Below, piece after piece: positions 24,577-33,850 of a DNA stretch of 64,000 nucleotides. The stretch comes from Gibbula magus. Taxonomy: Eukaryota > Mollusca > Gastropoda > Trochida > Trochidae. Every line of letters begins with the position of its first letter. Positions within the stretch are counted from its first letter, which is position 1. Made by a program: the position numbers and the translations under genes. Where the stretch lies: assembly GCA_936450465.1 (NCBI GenBank), contig OW388293.1, positions 46,862,040 through 46,926,039 on the forward strand. The letters are read 5' to 3'. The notes beneath the pieces are model-generated. The model saw only the letters and a program-made list of their open reading frames with translations. It was not told the DNA's origin and searched no databases.

Positions 24577-24664
24577 ACTGGTGATGAAGACGAAGTGATC
24601 CACACCGAGTCAGACCCCTGACGTCAGTCCATACGCAGCACTCAGTGTGATCCACACAGGGAAC

Positions 24665-25288
24665 ATGTCGTCCCCTGCCAAAGTCCACGACCCCCTGTAC
24701 AACTTCGAGACGCATTTCCCGGAACGTCTGTCCCGTCTTCACCTCCACCCCGAGCTTTCCTCTTCCTTCCGGAGACAGAAGCGGAACAAGAGGTCCGGGG
24801 CAAGGTATAAGACTCAGCCCGTCACCTTCGACGAGATCCAGGAGATGGACGAGGAGCCCCAGGCGGAGGAGAAGGAGGACGATACTCTCAAGCACAAGTT
24901 CAAGGTTTTCTCAAGGTCCATGGACGGACTGTTGCCAAAGATACCTACCGGATCTCCTCGTCAGAGTCACCGCAGACACTCCGGACACCCTCCAGCCATC
25001 CAGGAGATTGGCGCGGAGGTGGAGGCCAGACTGCAAGATCTCAGTCCTGAACCTCAGTCTACTGCCAAGTCTCCGCTCGCCCAGGCGAGGCTGGGGGAGG
25101 GTGGACAGGGAGCAGACGACAAGCCCAAAGCTTCTCTCTCCCCTGTCGAGTCTCTATCTTCTCCTGATGGAAGTGTACCAGTCGTGCCTCTGCCATCACC
25201 CAACACCGCACCTAGGAGACAGAAGATCACTGCTAAGGCGAAGAAGAGGCAGAAGGCCGCTGAAGAAGGCGGAGGGAAGGAGAGTTAG
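24665..25288 (+). CDS. C11orf96-like protein of 207 residues
   Basis: The exon opens at 24577 after a strong acceptor. The frame has an in-frame TGA at 24596, so translation most likely starts at the ATG at 24665 in this exon and the leading 88 bases are 5' UTR; the first exon was not found. Base composition is far GC-richer than the surroundings. The protein is hydrophilic and probably disordered. Near residues 39-55 it has an Arg/Lys-rich segment followed by ARYKTQPVTFDEIQEMDEE, the most conserved-looking part. A nearby FKVFSRSMDGL, several Ser-Pro sites and a basic C-terminal tail (KITAKAKKRQKAAEE) follow. I recall KTQPVTFDEIQE from vertebrate C11orf96 proteins, which have no established biochemical role. 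Assignment to that family is from memory and covers the motif, not the full length. The frame is sustained against two overlapping out-of-frame shadows, and codon third positions favour G/C. Confidence 0.8.
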   Translation: MSSPAKVHDPLYNFETHFPERLSRLHLHPELSSSFRRQKRNKRSGARYKTQPVTFDEIQEMDEEPQAEEKEDDTLKHKFKVFSRSMDGLLPKIPTGSPRQSHRRHSGHPPAIQEIGAEVEARLQDLSPEPQSTAKSPLAQARLGEGGQGADDKPKASLSPVESLSSPDGSVPVVPLPSPNTAPRRQKITAKAKKRQKAAEEGGGKES

Positions 25289-27058: not shown

Positions 27059-27064
27059 CACGGT

Positions 27065-27583
27065 AGTAGTATATAGGGGTCATTTTCATAGGGTGTTTGG
27101 TTAAGGGTTAAGGGTTAAGGGATAAGGATTATTAAATCATAGGGTGTATGCAATGTGCAATGTTGCAATGTGCAATCCCACCTCTCTAGAGAGTAAAGAG
27201 GTGGGAGGTGGGAGGTGGGAGGTGGGAGGTGGGAGATTGTAGAGGTATTAATTAGATAGGTAGGAGAGCCGGAAGTAGAGCAGGTAATTATGAATTAGAT
27301 AATATTTAATGATATGTGATAAACAATTATCAATAAGGCAATATTGATTGAATGGATAGCGATTGTAAATTATAGAATGATAAAACAGGAATCATTTAAA
27401 GTATTTAAATGATATAAAAGTTAGAATAACTAAATTAAAACGTGTTTAATATAAGTATACTGTGTGAGCAAGGTGTTACATTCCACAAGGTAGAGACGGA
27501 CAAGCTAACGAAGAGCCCCCCCCCCCCCCCCCCCCCCTCTCTCTATTATGAGAAGTCACGTCCTGCACTGCGACTCTAGCTTT

Positions 27584-27618
<35 letters not shown>

Positions 27619-28315
27619 TCTCTCTATTATGAGAAGTCACGTCCTGCACTGCGACTCTAGCTTTGTGAACATGAAAACAATGTGACTTGAAACGATTTCA
27701 AAGGGAGACACTTCTATACGAATTAGAATACCGTATACCTAATGATACCTATTATTTTCGTATATGAATATGAATTAGTAAATACGCACCTATAAAAAGG
27801 CGCGAACAGCATTGTCCACTTGACTATTCATCTTTCTGGTGTAACAGAATGATATTTGTGTGTGTTGAAAAACAAGATTTAATGTGTTTACAATATAAAA
27901 CTGAACCAAACTCCTCCTTGAATTAGTGACGTATAAGATATACATATAATTATGAAGTGTACTGTCTTTAACTGTTGTTTACATAACTTGTAGCCAGTGA
28001 GTGAATACAAAGTTACTCCCGCTGTATTTATTTAAAGGTTATAAATAAGTTGTATATTGAAGTGATGCTGACTTTGTTAAGAAGTATAACTGTAAATGTG
28101 TAAGTGCACAGAGTCATAATGGACTTGTCAAGAAGTCTATGTTTTTTAATGCCTGTTTACTTTTAAATATGAACAGGTAATCGTGTGCTGTCAAGATGTC
28201 TTTCACTGTAAGGTAGTCCTTAATCAAGGATCCAGACGATTTGGTCTCCACTAGCTAGGGCCTCGTGATGCAGATACAAGCATTATCCCGAAGCGATTGT
28301 TGCCGGTAGATGTAT
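27065..28315 (+). repeat. left terminal inverted repeat (1,251 bp)
   Basis: It matches the complement of 31237-32401 essentially base for base wherever I compared it, and ends at GCCGGTAGATGTAT. From the outside inwards it holds three TTAAGGG heptamers (27101-27121), five GGTGGGA-type heptamers (27200-27234), two long C-runs (22 and 31 bases) separated by a 48-bp unit (27516-27616), and an inward-facing TATA box (27791). Compared with the right TIR it has one extra copy of the 48-bp unit plus the long C-runs and one fewer heptamer, which accounts for the length difference of 86 bp. Confidence 0.95.
27791..27798 (+). promoter_or_regulatory. TATA box in the left TIR, facing inwards
   Basis: TATAAAAAGG followed by CGCG, about 0.6 kb before the first internal gene. 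Transcription starting some 30 bases downstream would enter the plus-strand gene array after a leader of about 570 bases. A short 25-codon upstream frame begins at 27849. Promoter function is inferred from the motif and position. Confidence 0.5.
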
Positions 28316-28398
28316 ATAAATAAGACATAAGGCATTCTGTCTTCATTTGCGAGAGAAAACAAGGACAGATCAGTCAGAGGAATACTCCGGTGAACATC

Positions 28399-28656
28399 AT
28401 GCAAAGAAGATTATACATTCCTGATACACAAAAGTTTATAGACTTTTTTGAACGTCGACGTGAGGAATCCAGAGGAAACCAAAGTCGACCTTATTCATGC
28501 ATAATCCCTGTACCCAACAAGACTGAGGAAGCCACGGGAGTGCATAGGTCCAAGACCTCTCCGAAGCGTACCAAGACTATCCAAGGCGAAACAGAAGATA
28601 TTGGAGGAGGATGTAATAGCAATCATACTCCTCCTTCCAGAGATTTCTTTGCATAG
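28399..28656 (+). CDS. small Polinton-element protein 1 (85 residues)
   Basis: First open frame inside the TIRs; the nearest in-frame ATG is at 28399 (MQRRLYIPDTQKFIDFF). The N-terminal 25 residues look like an amphipathic helix (QKFIDFFERRREE) and the rest is polar and basic with SKTSPKRTKTIQG, so disorder is likely. It ends PPSRDFFA. I do not recognise the family and see no enzyme motif. Its place before a basic protein and an ATPase suggests a virion- or DNA-associated role, which is a guess. Confidence 0.6.
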   Translation: MQRRLYIPDTQKFIDFFERRREESRGNQSRPYSCIIPVPNKTEEATGVHRSKTSPKRTKTIQGETEDIGGGCNSNHTPPSRDFFA

Positions 28657-28802
28657 TAGTATATTACTAAGAAAACCGTCAGTAGAAATTATCTTTTCAC
28701 TGTCCAATATGCATGGTAATACATTTTTGCTATAAAACCGTTAAGTGAAAGGGCTCAGCATTCATTTTCCCTCTGGACGTTGGAGAGAGAAGACACATAA
28801 CC

Positions 28803-29087
28803 ATGAAGAGACCTTCGGTGAATAAACCTAAAGACATTTTCAGTACCCAAGATAAAGTAATAAAGTCCAGGAAATCAAAAACTTCAGCAAAGAAACAAGT
28901 CAAGACGCAGCGAATAAAATCTAAAAGGACACTTTGCAAGCAAAAGACCTCACCACCTGCAGTGAACATACAACACATCTCGACGACACAAGGCGTTGTG
29001 GACAGGGCTCTGGCTGCGCTAAAGAGACAGAGGCTAGAAAAGTATAAAAAGACTTCTTCTCAACCTCTCCTCACATATCTGTATTAG
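28803..29087 (+). CDS. small basic protein 2 (94 residues)
   Basis: The ATG at 28803 is in an AACCATGA context. The product is very rich in Lys and Arg (for example SRKSKTSAKKQVKTQRIKSK) and has few acidic residues, with a C-terminal helix-like segment GVVDRALAALKRQRLEKYKK. Such composition fits a DNA-condensing or core protein, as adenovirus-like viruses and Polintons often encode, but no sequence family is recognised. Its stop codon lies only six bases before the ATPase start, typical of compact viral gene arrays. Confidence 0.65.
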   Translation: MKRPSVNKPKDIFSTQDKVIKSRKSKTSAKKQVKTQRIKSKRTLCKQKTSPPAVNIQHISTTQGVVDRALAALKRQRLEKYKKTSSQPLLTYLY

Positions 29088-29093
29088 ATCGTA

Positions 29094-30797
29094 ATGGAGC
29101 TGGTCGCCTGTCCGGATTGTGGGAAGAGTTTTACACGTAAGGACAACCTACTGAGACATCAGAAGCAGAGGCATGGGTGGACTCCTTACACACCTCCGCC
29201 TCCTCCTCCGCCTCCTCCTCAGAGTGGGCAGTGGAGTGGTCAGTCTCCACCTCCTACTCCTCCTCCTCCTCAGAGTGGCCAGTGGAGCGGTCAGTCTCCG
29301 CCTCCTCCTCCTCTGCCTCAGAGTGACCAGTGTCAGCCTCCTCCTCCTCCTCCTCCGCCTCCTCATGAGCAGCGATTCCAGCTCGAGATTCCCTCCAACG
29401 CTCTCGTGGTCGGGCCAAGCGGTTCGGGGAAGAGTGTATTCGTCTTCAACCTATTACGATACGGCTTGATTCAACCATTACCAGATTCGATCGTTTGGTG
29501 CTATTCCGTGTGGCAACCTCTATACGAGAGCATTCGTCAAACCCTACCCCAGGTCCAGTTTGTGAAAGGACTACCCTATAACCTGGAGGAGGACAATTAC
29601 TTCGATGCCCATAAGCAGAACGTGTTGGTTCTAGACGATTTTCTGGCTGAAGCCAAGAATGACAAGCGAATCTCTCGTCTGTTTACTCAAACTTCGCACC
29701 ACAAAAATGTACTGATCTTTTTACTCCTGCAAAACCTATTCCCCAGAGGCAAGGAATCTCGCGACATTGCTCTTAATTCACAATACGTGACCCTTTTCAA
29801 TTCACCCGTGGACAGACAGCAAGTTAAGATATTTGCTAGGAGAATATTCCCTGATGATGTCACTAAGTTCATGACCCTATACGAAAAAGCCATTGAAACA
29901 CCTTATGGAAACTTAACCGTGGACCTTAAACCTGGTACGAGCGAGAAGAACAGACTCCATCCCAACATCTTGTCCTCTACTACTACAACCTATAGTCAGC
30001 AGGGTGGACCTCTACATCTACCAAAGGCAGAGATAAAAGACGTCTCTGTCGCCTCAGGCCATCAGTCGACTCAGGACATTGTAGCTGGAAACACGTCTCC
30101 TGACGAAAACATTGAAACAGCATCCTGTTCCAGTGAGGAGTCTGGTCCTTTCACCATGGCTACAGCTTGTGCTGATTGTGGTGTGTTGATAGACAATATG
30201 CATGATCTCCAAAAACACATCAAATCGTGGTGTCCAGCCAATGACAATGGCTTGAAAACCAAGAAGCGTAAACGGGTCATCTATGAGACCGACAGTGAGG
30301 ATGAAGAGATACAGCAGGCTGTTCAGAAAGGCGCTGGTAGCAAAGATTCAAGAGCACTCTCTCGTCACTGGAAGCCCATCAATGACATGACAGCCGAGGA
30401 ATGGCAAAATGTTGGTTTACAACGTATCTGGAGGCGGGTTTATGACCTTTATCAAAATGATATGAAACTCACCAGGAAAAAGTACAAGCAGCGTGGCAGA
30501 ACAGACGAATGGATTGAGAGAAAAATGAAACAGCTGTGGGATGCTAAATTGTTGGAAAGTCTCAACAGCGTACTCGAGTTTACTCACTATTTTAAAGATG
30601 CGCCTTTCTTTACACCAATCCTAATGAGTCTGGATGACATTGACCCAGCCTCAGATCGAACTGTGATAAAGGGAAAGATAAGGCGCTTCATTAATCCTAA
30701 AATGAAGGACATTTCAACTCGTCTAGATCGACCTGAATTGGAAAGTGACATGGAATCAGACATGGCTCCTGATGAGAGTACTGCCGATGACGAGTGA
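29094..30797 (+). CDS. packaging-type P-loop ATPase with two zinc fingers (567 residues)
   Basis: An N-terminal C2H2 finger (C6, C9, H22, H27) is followed by a proline-rich spacer (about 31-91) made of Pro runs broken by three QSGQWSGQSP-type segments. The ATPase core has Walker A GPSGSGKS at 107-114, Walker B NVLVLDDF at 176-183, and a conserved LLLQN glutamine at 213 before LNSQYVTLFNSP, ending near PYGNLTVDLKPG (270-281). A second finger with the same spacing but a terminal Cys (C359, C362, H375, C380; MHDLQKH) and a KKRKR nuclear-localisation-like patch (390-394) follow. The C-terminal 150 residues are charged and helical, ending in an acidic tail. This fits the FtsK/HerA-type packaging ATPases (poxvirus A32-like) of Polintons and adintoviruses, which drive genome DNA into capsids. 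The family assignment rests on motifs and element context, not on a search. The frame is intact, with no stop or frameshift. Confidence 0.88.
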   Translation: MELVACPDCGKSFTRKDNLLRHQKQRHGWTPYTPPPPPPPPPQSGQWSGQSPPPTPPPPQSGQWSGQSPPPPPLPQSDQCQPPPPPPPPPHEQRFQLEIPSNALVVGPSGSGKSVFVFNLLRYGLIQPLPDSIVWCYSVWQPLYESIRQTLPQVQFVKGLPYNLEEDNYFDAHKQNVLVLDDFLAEAKNDKRISRLFTQTSHHKNVLIFLLLQNLFPRGKESRDIALNSQYVTLFNSPVDRQQVKIFARRIFPDDVTKFMTLYEKAIETPYGNLTVDLKPGTSEKNRLHPNILSSTTTTYSQQGGPLHLPKAEIKDVSVASGHQSTQDIVAGNTSPDENIETASCSSEESGPFTMATACADCGVLIDNMHDLQKHIKSWCPANDNGLKTKKRKRVIYETDSEDEEIQQAVQKGAGSKDSRALSRHWKPINDMTAEEWQNVGLQRIWRRVYDLYQNDMKLTRKKYKQRGRTDEWIERKMKQLWDAKLLESLNSVLEFTHYFKDAPFFTPILMSLDDIDPASDRTVIKGKIRRFINPKMKDISTRLDRPELESDMESDMAPDESTADDE

Positions 30798-30869
30798 TCA
30801 GGACTGATTTAAAACATCTGTTGTGAGCCAACCCAGCATCAGTTGACTCCCAGTCCTCACTGAGACAGG

Positions 30870-31019
30870 ATGAGTCTACCTAACTTGCTTCACATCGTGA
30901 AAACACCACGTCCACTCAAGAGAAAGAATGACAAGAAAAAGACTATTTCCCTGTTTGTCAAAGGTGTAATAAAACTTGGACCTCCTGGGCGAAGAAAATT
31001 GAAAAAGACAAATACCTAA
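30870..31019 (+). CDS. small basic protein 3 (49 residues)
   Basis: A short open frame in the same direction, 72 bases after the ATPase stop, with ATG in a GGATGA context. The product is strongly basic (PRPLKRKNDKKK and GPPGRRKLKKTNT) around a short hydrophobic ISLFVKGVIKLG. No family is recognised. Its place in the array and its composition suggest another DNA- or core-associated peptide. It is short enough that chance cannot be excluded. Confidence 0.45.
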   Translation: MSLPNLLHIVKTPRPLKRKNDKKKTISLFVKGVIKLGPPGRRKLKKTNT

Positions 31020-31096
31020 AACTCTAAATGGTGACTTGACATATGACTCTGTTGACTTGGTTTTGTATCCCATTTGACAAGCAGATATTGAGAATG

Positions 31097-31102
31097 AATA
31101 AA
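31097..31102 (+). terminator. candidate polyadenylation signal of the element
   Basis: An AATAAA hexamer lies 78 bases after the last small frame and before the right TIR, in the right place to end a plus-strand transcript of the four genes. Confidence 0.45.
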
Positions 31103-31236
31103 TTTCTGAAACTGCTGCCTTGTTTTGTTTTCTTTTGTTTGACACTTTTCATGTGTTAGAATCCAAGAAAAGACAATTAAATATAAAAATATTATAACAA
31201 GATATATATCATAATGCATAGCAATGAAGATTTATC

Positions 31237-32401
31237 ATACATCTACCGGCAACAATCGCTTCGGGATAATGCTTGTATCTGCATCACGAGGCCCTAGCTA
31301 GTGGAGACCAAATCGTCTGGATCCTTGATTAAGGACTACCTTACAGTGAAAGACATCTTGACAGCACACGATTACCTGTTCATATTTAAAAGTAAACAGG
31401 CATTAAAAAACATAGACTTCTTGACAAGTCCATTATGACTCTGTGCACTTACACATTTACAGTTATACTTCTTAACAAAGTCAGCATCACTTCAATATAC
31501 AACTTATTTATAACCTTTAAATAAATACAGCGGGAGTAACTTTGTATTCACTCACTGGCTACAAGTTATGTAAACAACAGTTAAAGACAGTACACTTCAT
31601 AATTATATGTATATCTTATACGTCACTAATTCAAGGAGGAGTTTGGTTCAGTTTTATATTGTAAACACATTAAATCTTGTTTTTCAACACACACAAATAT
31701 CATTCTGTTACACCAGAAAGATGAATAGTCAAGTGGACAATGCTGTTCGCGCCTTTTTATAGGTGCGTATTTACTAATTCATATTCATATACGAAAATAA
31801 TAGGTATCATTAGGTATACGGTATTCTAATTCGTATAGAAGTGTCTCCCTTTGAAATCGTTTCAAGTCACATTGTTTTCATGTTCACAAAGCTAGAGTCG
31901 CAGTGCAGGACGTGACTTCTCATAATAGAGAGAGAGGGGGGGGCTCTTCGTTAGCTTGTCCGTCTCTACCTTGTGGAATGTAACACCTTGCTCACACAGT
32001 ATACTTATATTAAACACGTTTTAATTTAGTTATTCTAACTTTTATATCATTTAAATACTTTAAATGATTCCTGTTTTATCATTCTATAATTTACAATCGC
32101 TATCCATTCAATCAATATTGCCTTATTGATAATTGTTTATCACATATCATTAAATATTATCTAATTCATAATTACCTGCTCTACTTCCGGCTCTCCTACC
32201 TATCTAATTAATACCTCTACAATCTCCCACCTCCCACCTCCCACCTCCCACCTCCCACCTCCCACCTCTTTACTCTCTAGAGAGGTGGGATTGCACATTG
32301 CAACATTGCACATTGCATACACCCTATGATTTAATAATCCTTATCCCTTAACCCTTAACCCTTAACCAAACACCCTATGAAAATGACCCCTATATACTAC
32401 T
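31237..32401 (-). repeat. right terminal inverted repeat (1,165 bp)
   Basis: Complement of the left TIR (27065-28315). It has a short G-run of eight bases (31936-31943) where the left TIR has the 48-bp duplication and C-runs, and six TCCCACC heptamers (32225-32266) where the left has five. The outer end is CCCCTATATACTACT, directly followed by the target duplication CACGGT. Confidence 0.95.
31754..31761 (-). promoter_or_regulatory. TATA box in the right TIR, facing inwards
   Basis: Mirror copy of the left TIR TATA box (TATAAAAAGG on the minus strand). Transcription from it would run antisense across the ATPase gene. I see no minus-strand gene inside the element for it to serve. Confidence 0.4.
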
Positions 32402-32627
32402 CACGGTCAGTTTTTCTTTAGTTACGAATCTCCAAAGAAACTCCTGAGAAACCTCTTTGATGGATAACGTTGTGTAACTTGACATTTATCTCTCAAATAA
32501 TAAATACAATATAAAACATATTTCAGATATTTTCCACTAGTAAGACACATGATGCTGTTTGCAACAGTTCTAATTAAACACATACGAGTGCCAAAATGAT
32601 ACAATAACTTTAAAGACATTAAAACAG

Positions 32628-32745: not shown

Positions 32746-32991
32746 GCTGTATGCTATAACGGCATTATCTCAACTACGTCAACGTTACTGAGGAATATGA
32801 CCAATGTAGTTATTGTAGGGTATGAACATCACGAAACTGTAGGATATTGTGCAATAACGTAACTGAAGGTTTTGTCAAACAAAGTTACCAAATTTCAAAG
32901 ATGTAATCGAGTTATTAGTGGATATAGCCAATAATTAGCTGTGATGCATAGTGACAATAACGTTCTTCAACGATATGACCAAAATACGCAG

Positions 32992-33850
32992 CTGAAGGAT
33001 ATGACCAATAACGTAACTGAAGGATATGACCAATAACGCAGCTGAAGGATATGACCAATAACGTTACTGACGGATATGACCAATAACATAACTGAAAGAT
33101 ATTACCAATAAGGTTACTGAAGGATATGACCAATAACGTTACTGACGGATATGACCAATAACATAACTGAAAGATATTACCAATAAGGTTACTGAAGGAT
33201 ATGATCAATAACGTTGCTGACGGATATGACCAATAACATAACTGAAAGATATTACCAATAAGGTTACTGAAGGATATGACCAATAACGTTACTGACGGAT
33301 ATGACCAATAACATAACTGAAAGATATTACCAATAAGGTTACTGAAGGATATGATCAATAACGTTGCTGACGGATATGACCAATAACGTAACTGAAGGAT
33401 ATGGCCAAAAACCTCACTGAAGGATATGACCAATAACGTTACTGACGGATATGACCAATAACGTAACTGAAGGATATGGCCAAAAACGTCACTGAAGGAT
33501 ATGACCAATAACGTTACTGAAGGATATGGCCAATAACGTAACTGAAAGTTATGACCAATAAGGTTACTGAAGGATATGGCAAAAAACGTTACTGAAGGAT
33601 ATGGCAAAAAACATAACTGAAGGATATGACCAATAACGTTAATTAAGGATATGACCAATAACGTAACTGAAGGATATGACCAATAACGTAACTAAAGGAT
33701 ATGACCAATAACGTTACTTGCGGATATGACCAATAACGTTACTGAAGGATATGACCAATAACGTTACTGGCAGATATTACCGATAACGTCACTAAAGGAC
33801 ATAATATAACAGATACTGTTACTGACAGGTATGACCAATAACGTCATTGT
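32992..33850. repeat. 25-bp minisatellite with 75- and 150-bp higher-order periods
   Basis: About 34 copies of AAGGATATGACCAATAACGT + NACTG in tandem. Within it, the marker ACGTT(A/G)CTGACGG recurs at 33061, 33136, 33211, 33286 and 33361, exactly 75 bases apart and alternating A and G, which gives a 150-bp super-period. More diverged units extend leftwards to about 32800. The 247-codon open frame on the minus strand (33658-32915), with 25-residue repeats, is explained by the array and is not called as a gene. Confidence 0.95.

What the first reader, a model, noticed from the sequence alone, without database searches (positions are those of the whole stretch)
27065..32401. Complete miniature Polinton that keeps a packaging ATPase but no replication, integration or capsid genes
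Seen directly: TIRs of about 1.2 kb, a 6-bp duplication (CACGGT), AG...CT ends, and a 2.9-kb interior with one 567-codon ATPase frame plus three small frames. Established: Maverick/Polintons make 6-bp duplications and normally carry polymerase, integrase, protease and capsid genes. Inference: this is a satellite that borrows replication, integration and capsids from a full-length relative but keeps its own ATPase, perhaps to direct packaging of its own DNA. Keeping the packaging motor while losing all else is unusual, because non-autonomous elements normally lose every gene.
Basis: partly seen in the sequence, partly recalled or inferred. Interest (0 to 1): 0.88.

Follow-up and report, generated by a model that had tools for sequence, protein, structure and literature searches.

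The report
Polinton satellite carrying packaging motor gene
A short virus-like jumping element in an animal (probably mollusc) genome has lost the genes for copying, inserting and coating itself but keeps an intact DNA-packaging motor gene; many such copies share a genome with full-length relatives, some of which have matching ends, which suggests a family of satellites that live off larger viruses.

Summary
Window 27065-32401 is a complete 5,337-bp insertion: AGTAGT tips, CACGGT duplication, 1.2-kb TIRs without a substitution, four same-strand frames filling 82% of a 2.9-kb interior. The 567-aa protein is a packaging ATPase by fold and homology, with a zinc finger on each side. In the host genome (1.47 Gb) a capped search scored 77 places with this ATPase (69-100% identity), 62 without an in-frame stop (frameshifts not counted). 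Twelve complete copies, this one included, have twelve different 6-bp duplications. None of the 77 lies within 20 kb of 111 Polinton integrases found. The genome also holds 16-kb Polintons whose tips match satellite copies over 108-113 bp but whose ATPase is a remote type (36%). Another full-length lineage carries the fingered ATPase (64%, below the 77) with a p94 homologue directly upstream. ATPase dN/dS is 0.25 and 0.17 in two comparisons. This is an amplified satellite lineage of mosaic origin, not a one-off deletion. That the ATPase directs packaging of satellite DNA into helper capsids is inference. The literature searches made here listed no description of such elements.

The parts
27059..27064 (.). 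Left target-site duplication CACGGT
32402..32407 (.). Right target-site duplication CACGGT
27065..28314 (+). Left terminal inverted repeat, 1,250 bp
   Evidence: aligned to the right repeat without substitution
31238..32401 (-). Right terminal inverted repeat, 1,164 bp
27065..27070 (+). Tip AGTAGT: two copies of a 3-nt unit; possible start site for protein-primed replication (inference)
   Evidence: AGTAGT also begins most satellite and both 16-kb copies listed
27099..27235 (+). Three arrays of 7-bp repeats: GGTTAAG 27099-27131, TGCAATG 27149-27176, GAGGTGG 27198-27235; mirrored in the right repeat
   Evidence: window 27139-27262 aligns with the two ends of the C16 16-kb Polinton at 94% and 100% over 124 bp
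27176..27206 (+). Subterminal hairpin, 10-bp stem
   Evidence: DNA fold z = -5.17, 0 of 200 shuffles as stable
28313..28318 (+). TATA-like element at the inner edge of the left repeat, 86 bp upstream of p85 (prediction)
28399..28656 (+). p85, 85 aa, homologous to the 124-aa protein of 16-kb Polintons
28803..29087 (+). p94, 94 aa, pI 10.9, homologous to the 79-aa ORF upstream of the ATPase in full-length lineage 2
29094..30797 (+). Packaging ATPase, 567 aa: N-terminal C2H2 finger, proline-rich linker, FtsK/HerA-type core (residues 97-289), C-terminal C2HC finger, helical domain
30870..31019 (+). p49, 49 aa, lysine/arginine-rich
   Evidence: same frame in related copies
31097..31102 (+). AATAAA polyadenylation-like signal after p49 (prediction)

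Best explanation
It is a satellite of Polinton/Maverick (adintovirus-like) elements. Shown: it is a complete insertion of a multi-copy lineage whose complete copies keep four genes (p85, p94, fingered packaging ATPase, p49) and lack integrase, polymerase, protease and capsid genes; full-length Polintons with the same tips are present in the genome; the ATPase and p94 lineages evolved under purifying selection. Inferred: helper polymerase and terminal protein copy it from the AGTAGT tips, helper integrase inserts it (6-bp duplications), and helper capsids carry it. Inferred with less certainty: the satellite makes its own ATPase, with zinc fingers that could bind its repeat arrays, so that its own DNA is pumped into helper capsids in preference to the helper's; p85, p94 and p49 would be accessory or DNA-binding proteins. 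It would work like a phage satellite that redirects packaging, with a whole motor in place of a small specificity subunit.
For: Structure and duplication. Copies: 47 TIR-end matches; by my reading they form 19 facing pairs, 16 of them 4.2-6.3 kb apart, one 2.1 kb and two about 16 kb. 12 copies with the cassette and 12 different exact 6-bp duplications: window, L010, L013, L014, L016, L018, L021, L023, L024, L025, L032, L036. ATPase: 77 places scored, 62 without stops; 0 of 77 within 20 kb of 111 integrase places, the nearest at 20 and 49 kb. Full-length lineage 1: C16:24782656-24798607 (duplication AATAAT) and C12:67900332-67916445 (GACGGT), rve+chromo integrase and a 1,507-aa frame with polymerase-type motifs; satellites L016 and L018 match the C16 element exactly over the first 108 and 113 bp. 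Lineage 2 (C3:52.11-52.12 Mb): integrase, Peptidase_C5, capsid-like frame, fingered ATPase 64% identical over residues 89-448, p94 homologue just upstream. Tree: the eight satellite rows, lineage 2 and P0001 in one clade 95/90, lineage 1 elsewhere. dN/dS 0.25 (0.20-0.33) against L025 and 0.17 (0.12-0.22) against L036. Fold: STIV B204, IVa2 and A32-like packaging ATPases.
Against: No virion, transcript or replication data. The searches score only the best candidates (77 of 8,297 for the ATPase, 111 of 1,400 for the integrase), so the open-frame fraction is biased upward, and the 77 stop at 69% identity: the lineage-2 ATPase (64%), which does lie beside an integrase, is not among them, so '0 of 77' says only that the closest relatives are unlinked. 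Stops were counted, frameshifts not. Of the five more divergent loci fetched (L032-L036), only L033 and L036 have the ATPase open in full; L032 and L034 are split and L035 lacks the front. Window versus subfamily B differ mainly in a 1-kb segment, so that dN/dS rests on a short stretch; against L036 dS is 1.2. Within the window's own subfamily pairs differ by 1-5 synonymous and 0-4 replacement changes, too few to judge. p85 against L025 (2 and 6 changes, 0.84) and p49 against L022 and L025 (0.63, 1.11; these frames do not align in full) show no clear constraint. Selection could have acted in a full-length or other master copy. Lineage 1 has an ATPase of its own. In the tree the satellites are together in only 76% of bootstraps when counted against the full-length rows. 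No DNA binding by the fingers is shown.
Confidence: 0.72

Rival explanations
1. Deletion derivatives that hitch-hike: short copies arose by internal deletion from a lineage-2-like Polinton, are mobilised because their ends are intact, and the ATPase cassette is only what the deletion left; its conservation reflects selection in the full-length source.
For: In lineage 2 the p94 homologue and the ATPase are neighbours, so one block could survive one deletion. Gene-free short elements with the same kind of tips exist (L017, L019), and one short element with a lone penton-like frame (L020). Three of five divergent copies have a damaged ATPase.
Against: Three ATPase classes (98-100, 86-92, 69-78% identity to the window's; 14, 16 and 47 of 77 places) have stops in only 2, 4 and 9 places. 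A divergent copy, L036, keeps all four genes in the same order. p85 and p94-ATPase are not neighbours in the full-length elements read, and p85 is closest to lineage 1. The ends match lineage 1, not lineage 2.
Confidence: 0.17
2. Interference rather than carriage: the satellite ATPase blocks or poisons helper packaging, and the cassette persists because hosts carrying it suffer less, as proposed for integrated virophages (recalled; see also abstracts).
For: The ATPase is kept while capsid genes are lost; the fingered ATPase is a different type from that of lineage 1.
Against: The lineage multiplies as an element (12 different duplications), which host benefit alone does not explain. The P-loop and the DD motif are kept, whereas a poison subunit need not keep them.
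Confidence: 0.1
3. One part of a divided genome: short elements carry the packaging cassette and partner elements without an ATPase carry the rest, so that both need each other.
For: None of 77 ATPases is linked to an integrase. One copy of the commonest integrase class (L037) showed a protease but no ATPase match in the 3.5 kb fetched.
Against: The three other copies of that class that I fetched have an ATPase frame of 221-224 aa at the expected place (L043, L044, L045), and lineages 1, 2 and 3 have ATPase frames too.
Confidence: 0.03

Closest known systems
Polinton/Maverick elements (adintoviruses)
   Same: 6-bp duplications, AG...CT ends (the end rule is recalled), long TIRs, FtsK/HerA-type packaging ATPase; full-length members lie in the same genome
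   Different: 5-6 kb against 15-20 kb; no polymerase, integrase, protease or capsid gene. Krupovic et al. 2014 (PMC4028283, passages read) report that nine Polintons without capsid genes also lacked protease and ATPase; here the ATPase is kept without them
Phage-inducible chromosomal islands (PICIs)
   Same: Satellites that use helper capsids and encode a protein that acts on packaging specificity (Rpp binds helper TerS and switches it to PICI DNA; PMC6739421, passages read)
   Different: Different viruses and hosts, no homology claimed; here the encoded protein is the motor ATPase itself. The likeness is of working principle only and is untested
Transpovirons of Mimiviridae
   Same: Small linear satellite-like DNA (about 7 kb) with TIRs of 380-520 nt; transpoviron proteins found with virophage particles and suggested to act in packaging (PMC7031253, passages read)
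   Different: Plasmid-like DNA of giant viruses; core genes are a helicase, an unknown protein and a zinc-finger protein; no 6-bp duplication and no packaging ATPase mentioned in those passages
Gene-free non-autonomous DNA transposons (MITE-like)
   Same: Short, intact ends, moved in trans
   Different: They have no genes under selection; here 62 of 77 ATPase places have no stop. Gene-free copies with the same kind of ends also exist (L017, L019)

Membership tests
Polinton/Maverick (as mobile-element superfamily) | 6-bp target-site duplication | tested here: met
   12 satellite copies, 12 different duplications
Polinton/Maverick (as mobile-element superfamily) | Terminal inverted repeats with AG...CT ends (rule recalled) | tested here: met
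   tips shared with full-length copies
Polinton/Maverick (as mobile-element superfamily) | rve integrase | tested here: not met
   no ORF above 98 aa in the element besides the ATPase; six of its ORFs scanned with Pfam, none an integrase; none of 77 ATPase places within 20 kb of 111 integrase places
Polinton/Maverick (as mobile-element superfamily) | Protein-primed family B polymerase | tested here: not met
   no ORF above 98 aa besides the ATPase
Polinton/Maverick (as mobile-element superfamily) | Double jelly-roll capsid, penton and adenain-type protease | tested here: not met
   no ORF above 98 aa in the element besides the ATPase; none of six ORFs matches Peptidase_C5
Polinton/Maverick (as mobile-element superfamily) | FtsK/HerA-type packaging ATPase | tested here: met
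   fold and homology, clade with a full-length element's ATPase
Polinton satellite (proposed here) | Several copies at different sites with the same gene set | tested here: met
Polinton satellite (proposed here) | Possible helper with matching ends in the same genome | tested here: met
   C16 and C12 elements
Polinton satellite (proposed here) | Genes under purifying selection | tested here: met
   ATPase and p94; the branches on which it acted are not resolved
Polinton satellite (proposed here) | Packaging into helper particles | not testable with these tools
   needs particles or encapsidated DNA
PICI-like packaging redirection (working principle) | Encoded protein prefers satellite DNA ends over helper DNA ends | not testable with these tools
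   needs a binding or packaging assay

The most novel reading that the evidence does not exclude
Animal genomes host a class of packaging-redirecting virus satellites: short elements that share replication and integration ends with one Polinton lineage but carry the zinc-finger packaging motor of another, so that helper capsids are filled with satellite DNA. It would be an animal counterpart of phage satellites, with exchange of the front half of the motor gene between satellite families as its way of changing specificity.
Probability: 0.4. Interest if true: 0.93.

Novelty: new variant of a known kind. Interest (0 to 1): 0.82.

Why it matters
Whether animal Polintons still make particles is a long-standing open question (my statement from general knowledge). 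A lineage that keeps a packaging motor and three small genes, and kept the motor under selection while depending on others for copying and insertion, is hard to explain unless packaging still matters. It also gives a testable animal example of a satellite-helper pair within one genome, and a reason to look below the size cut-offs of surveys (one recent survey kept inserts of 6-80 kb, PMC12220804, passages read, which would drop this element).

Tried and rejected
One-off deletion: rejected by copy number, different duplications and several divergent classes. Chance or recombinant TIR: rejected by an exact duplication at exact tips in 12 copies. Host gene in the interior: rejected by fold and by phylogeny. 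Other 6-bp-duplication superfamilies (IS3EU, TA..TA; GingerRoot, mostly TA..TA; PMC10045372, passages read): ends do not fit. Divided genome: tested further when one full-length copy (L037) lacked an ATPase match; three sister copies have one. Inferring the same structure from the short contigs of database relatives P0001-P0006: dropped, since relatives outside this clade also sit on short contigs.

Led nowhere: IMG/VR scans with the ATPase, alignments A1 and A2, the 31-bp tip, p85 and p94 found no relative. The p94 protein search found none. p94 against the N-terminus of the Haliotis protein P0005 was no better than shuffles (288 of 1,000 as good). p85 against lineage 2's 116-aa protein and lineage 3's 163-aa protein was weak (77 and 50 of 2,000 shuffles as good). 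p85, p94 and p49 gave no tblastn match below 1e-3 in L038; p94's relation to the 79-aa ORF was seen only by direct alignment. The 1,507-aa frame gave no Pfam polymerase match and no useful PDB match; I call it polymerase by two motifs (NSAYG and DTDS; motif meaning recalled). Penton-like and capsid-like are my labels from gene position, length and recalled sequence character; no call confirms them. The protease frame of the lineage-1 copy L029 has no Pfam match; its relation to Peptidase_C5 proteins is by the sister copies and L038.

Rows left out of counts: of 18 loci, L017, L019 and L020 hold none of the four genes; of the other 15, nine show both tips and an exact duplication. L015 has an altered right tip beside a CATGAT duplication; L011, L012, L022 and L027 were cut before an end or its flank; L026 is rearranged. 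L011 (one stop) and L026 gave no ATPase frame of 430 aa and were left out of ATPase dN/dS; L032, L034 and L035 entered as their partial frames (453, 476, 461 aa), not. Ends of L033, L034 and L035 were not resolved.
Full report
What is there. The window holds a complete insertion, 27065-32401, flanked by CACGGT on both sides. The inverted repeats are 1,250 and 1,164 bp and agree without a substitution; they differ by one 7-bp repeat unit and by 93 bp of poly-C with a tandem duplication in the left arm. The first 171 bp carry the tip AGTAGT, three arrays of 7-bp units and a hairpin that is more stable than all of 200 shuffles. The 2,923-bp interior has four frames on the + strand: p85, p94, a 567-aa protein and p49; they fill 2,397 bases.

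The large protein. It has a C2H2 finger, a proline-rich linker, an ATPase core, a second (C2HC) finger and a helical domain. The model (mean pLDDT 67; blocks within the core 63-90) matches the packaging NTPase B204 of STIV2 first in the PDB; the viral library lists A32-like, IVa2 and an adintovirus FtsK-like protein among the best. The first protein search gave 21 relatives, some named Haliotis, Mya, Pecten and Mytilus; a profile search gave 70. In Mya a gene model joins such an ATPase to a chromodomain end (P0007), as the lineage-1 integrase has. Between the window and its nearest database relative P0001 the core is 156 of 193 identical and the C-terminal finger 20 of 25, against 25 of 64 and 18 of 48 in the two linkers.

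The host genome. The genome became reachable: 1.47 Gb in 140 contigs, unnamed. Mollusc is my inference from the relatives. The first 136 bp of the element gave 47 matches; by my reading they form 19 facing pairs, 16 of them 4.2-6.3 kb apart, one 2.1 kb and two about 16 kb. I fetched 16 of these pairs and two p85-bearing places. Fifteen of the 18 hold genes of the cassette; nine of the 15 show both tips and an exact 6-bp duplication, each different, and match all four genes. With the window and two divergent copies, L032 (its ATPase split) and L036, that makes twelve.

How many and how intact. The ATPase search scored 77 main places (8,297 first-look candidates): 14 at 98-100%, 16 at 86-92% and 47 at 69-78% identity, with stops in 2, 4 and 9 of them (recount: 15 of 77). 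Frameshifts were not counted. p85 gave 144 matches, 36 of them at 91-100% and all 36 without a stop. For comparison, by my count of the rows, 18 of 111 integrase places contain a stop. None of the 77 ATPase places is within 20 kb of an integrase place; two are within 50 kb, at 20 and 49 kb. Two limits: the 77 end at 69% identity, so lineage 2's ATPase (64%) is outside them, and five more divergent satellite loci (L032-L036) are outside too; of those five only L033 and L036 have the ATPase open in full.

Candidate helpers. Lineage 1, two copies of 16.0 and 16.1 kb (C16, C12) with duplications AATAAT and GACGGT (end positions read), has an integrase (PF00665 and chromo), a 1,507-aa frame with polymerase motifs, a capsid-like and a penton-like frame, and a 223-aa finger-less ATPase 36% identical to the satellite's over the core. 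Its tip matches satellites L016 and L018 exactly over 108 and 113 bp; the window shares only the first 9 bases of the tip exactly, but a 124-bp stretch behind it is 94% and 100% identical to the two ends. Lineage 2 (C3:52.11-52.12 Mb, a second copy on C5) has an integrase 54% identical to lineage 1's, a Peptidase_C5 protease, a capsid-like frame and a fingered ATPase 64% identical to the window's over residues 89-448; its tip begins AGTAGG where the two copies start to agree (the other end was not read). A third lineage (L039) has a finger-less ATPase. The commonest integrase class (about 80% identical to lineage 1's) has a finger-less ATPase 66-73% identical to lineage 1's in three of four copies looked at; the fourth, L037, shows none in 3.5 kb.

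Origin of the cassette. In the tree of ATPase cores the eight satellite rows, lineage 2 and P0001 form one clade (95/90), with lineages 1 and 3 in a distant one (98/94; these two are long branches, and the tool warns about their join). p94 is homologous to a 79-aa frame directly upstream of the lineage-2 ATPase (0 of 2,000 shuffles as good), p85 to the 124-aa frame of lineage 1 (0 of 2,000) and only weakly like lineage 2's 116-aa frame (77 of 2,000). The satellite is thus a mosaic: ends and p85 like lineage 1, p94 and ATPase like lineage 2. Satellite subfamilies also exchange pieces. In 250-base bins the window and L024, L025 and L027 are mostly 96-100% alike (88-93% in the poly-C bin of L024 and L025, 92% in one late bin of L024, outermost repeats of L027 not aligned), except about 28815-29815, most of p94 and the front of the ATPase, where identity is 68-92%.

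Selection. By the Nei-Gojobori method the ATPase gives dN/dS 0.25 (bootstrap 0.20-0.33) against L025 and 0.17 (0.12-0.22) against L036. p94 gives 0.21-0.28 in the nine comparisons with enough change; p85 gives 0.41-0.45 against the divergent class but 0.84 against L025 on eight changes; p49 gives 0.23-0.34 against the divergent class, 0.63 and 1.11 against L022 and L025, whose frames differ. Within the window's own subfamily there are too few changes to judge. The data show a selected lineage, not that selection acted in the satellites alone.

How it most likely works. Shown: mobility as a family, lack of its own integrase, polymerase, protease and capsid genes, full-length elements with the same ends. 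From print: 6-bp duplications are typical of the rve integrase and of Polintons (PMC12220804 and PMC10045372, passages read). Inferred: protein-primed copying from AGTAGT; in L020 one tip has an extra AGT unit inside an exact CCTAAG duplication, which fits slippage at that repeat. Inferred and least sure: the fingered ATPase selects satellite DNA for helper capsids.

Comparison with print. Krupovic et al. 2014 (PMC4028283, passages) describe joint absence of capsid, protease and ATPase genes in nine Polintons; this lineage breaks that pattern. Searches for Polintons with non-autonomous, satellite, zinc-finger and related terms listed no paper that I recognised from title and start of abstract as describing such elements, on six exact phrases, found none. 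Subscription papers and Repbase entries were not searched.

I added the limit of the 77, the damaged divergent copies, L037 with its three sister copies and the weaker dN/dS values.

Noticed in passing
L020:240-2402 (G000 C8:52.194 Mb): A 2.2-kb element with lineage-1-like tips, CCTAAG duplication and one penton-like 142-aa frame; its right tip has one extra AGT unit.
   Followed up: partly
L017:252-5165 and L019:286-4530: Short elements with similar tips (L017 shares 126 bp exactly with lineage 1) and 6-bp duplications but no frame above 81 aa: gene-free non-autonomous copies beside the gene-bearing ones.
   Followed up: partly
window 28815-29815 against L024, L025, L027: Mainly p94 and the front of the ATPase differ between satellite subfamilies that are otherwise nearly identical, as if this module were exchanged.
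   Followed up: partly
L026 (G000 C6:15.16 Mb): Two inverted 1.9-kb arms at 99.9% identity holding two p85 and p94 copies and only the front of the ATPase.
   Followed up: no
L033:4074-4670: A 198-aa frame in a divergent satellite locus, beginning MSRKKLKTVEMHRGRK, not seen in the window element.
   Followed up: no
L037 (G000 C1:8.3365-8.3400 Mb): Beside an 81% integrase copy: protease match but no ATPase match in 3.5 kb, unlike three sister copies.
   Followed up: partly
L001 (contig of an Ignavibacteria MAG): Probably a mis-binned adintovirus-like contig: ATPase end, small frames and a Peptidase_C5 protease.
   Followed up: partly
database protein P0005 (Haliotis cracherodii): Named eukaryotic translation initiation factor 5B-like, but it holds parts of an ATPase like this one, with the C-terminal finger and helical domain.
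   Followed up: no
window 32955-33844: Array of about 35 copies of a 25-bp unit starting about 550 bp beyond the element.
   Followed up: no
window 24599-25285: Host exon-like frame with a DUF4695 match, 1.8 kb upstream of the element.
   Followed up: no
G000: At least 111 Polinton integrase places of several divergence classes, 93 of them without stops: a genome rich in apparently intact Polintons.
   Followed up: partly
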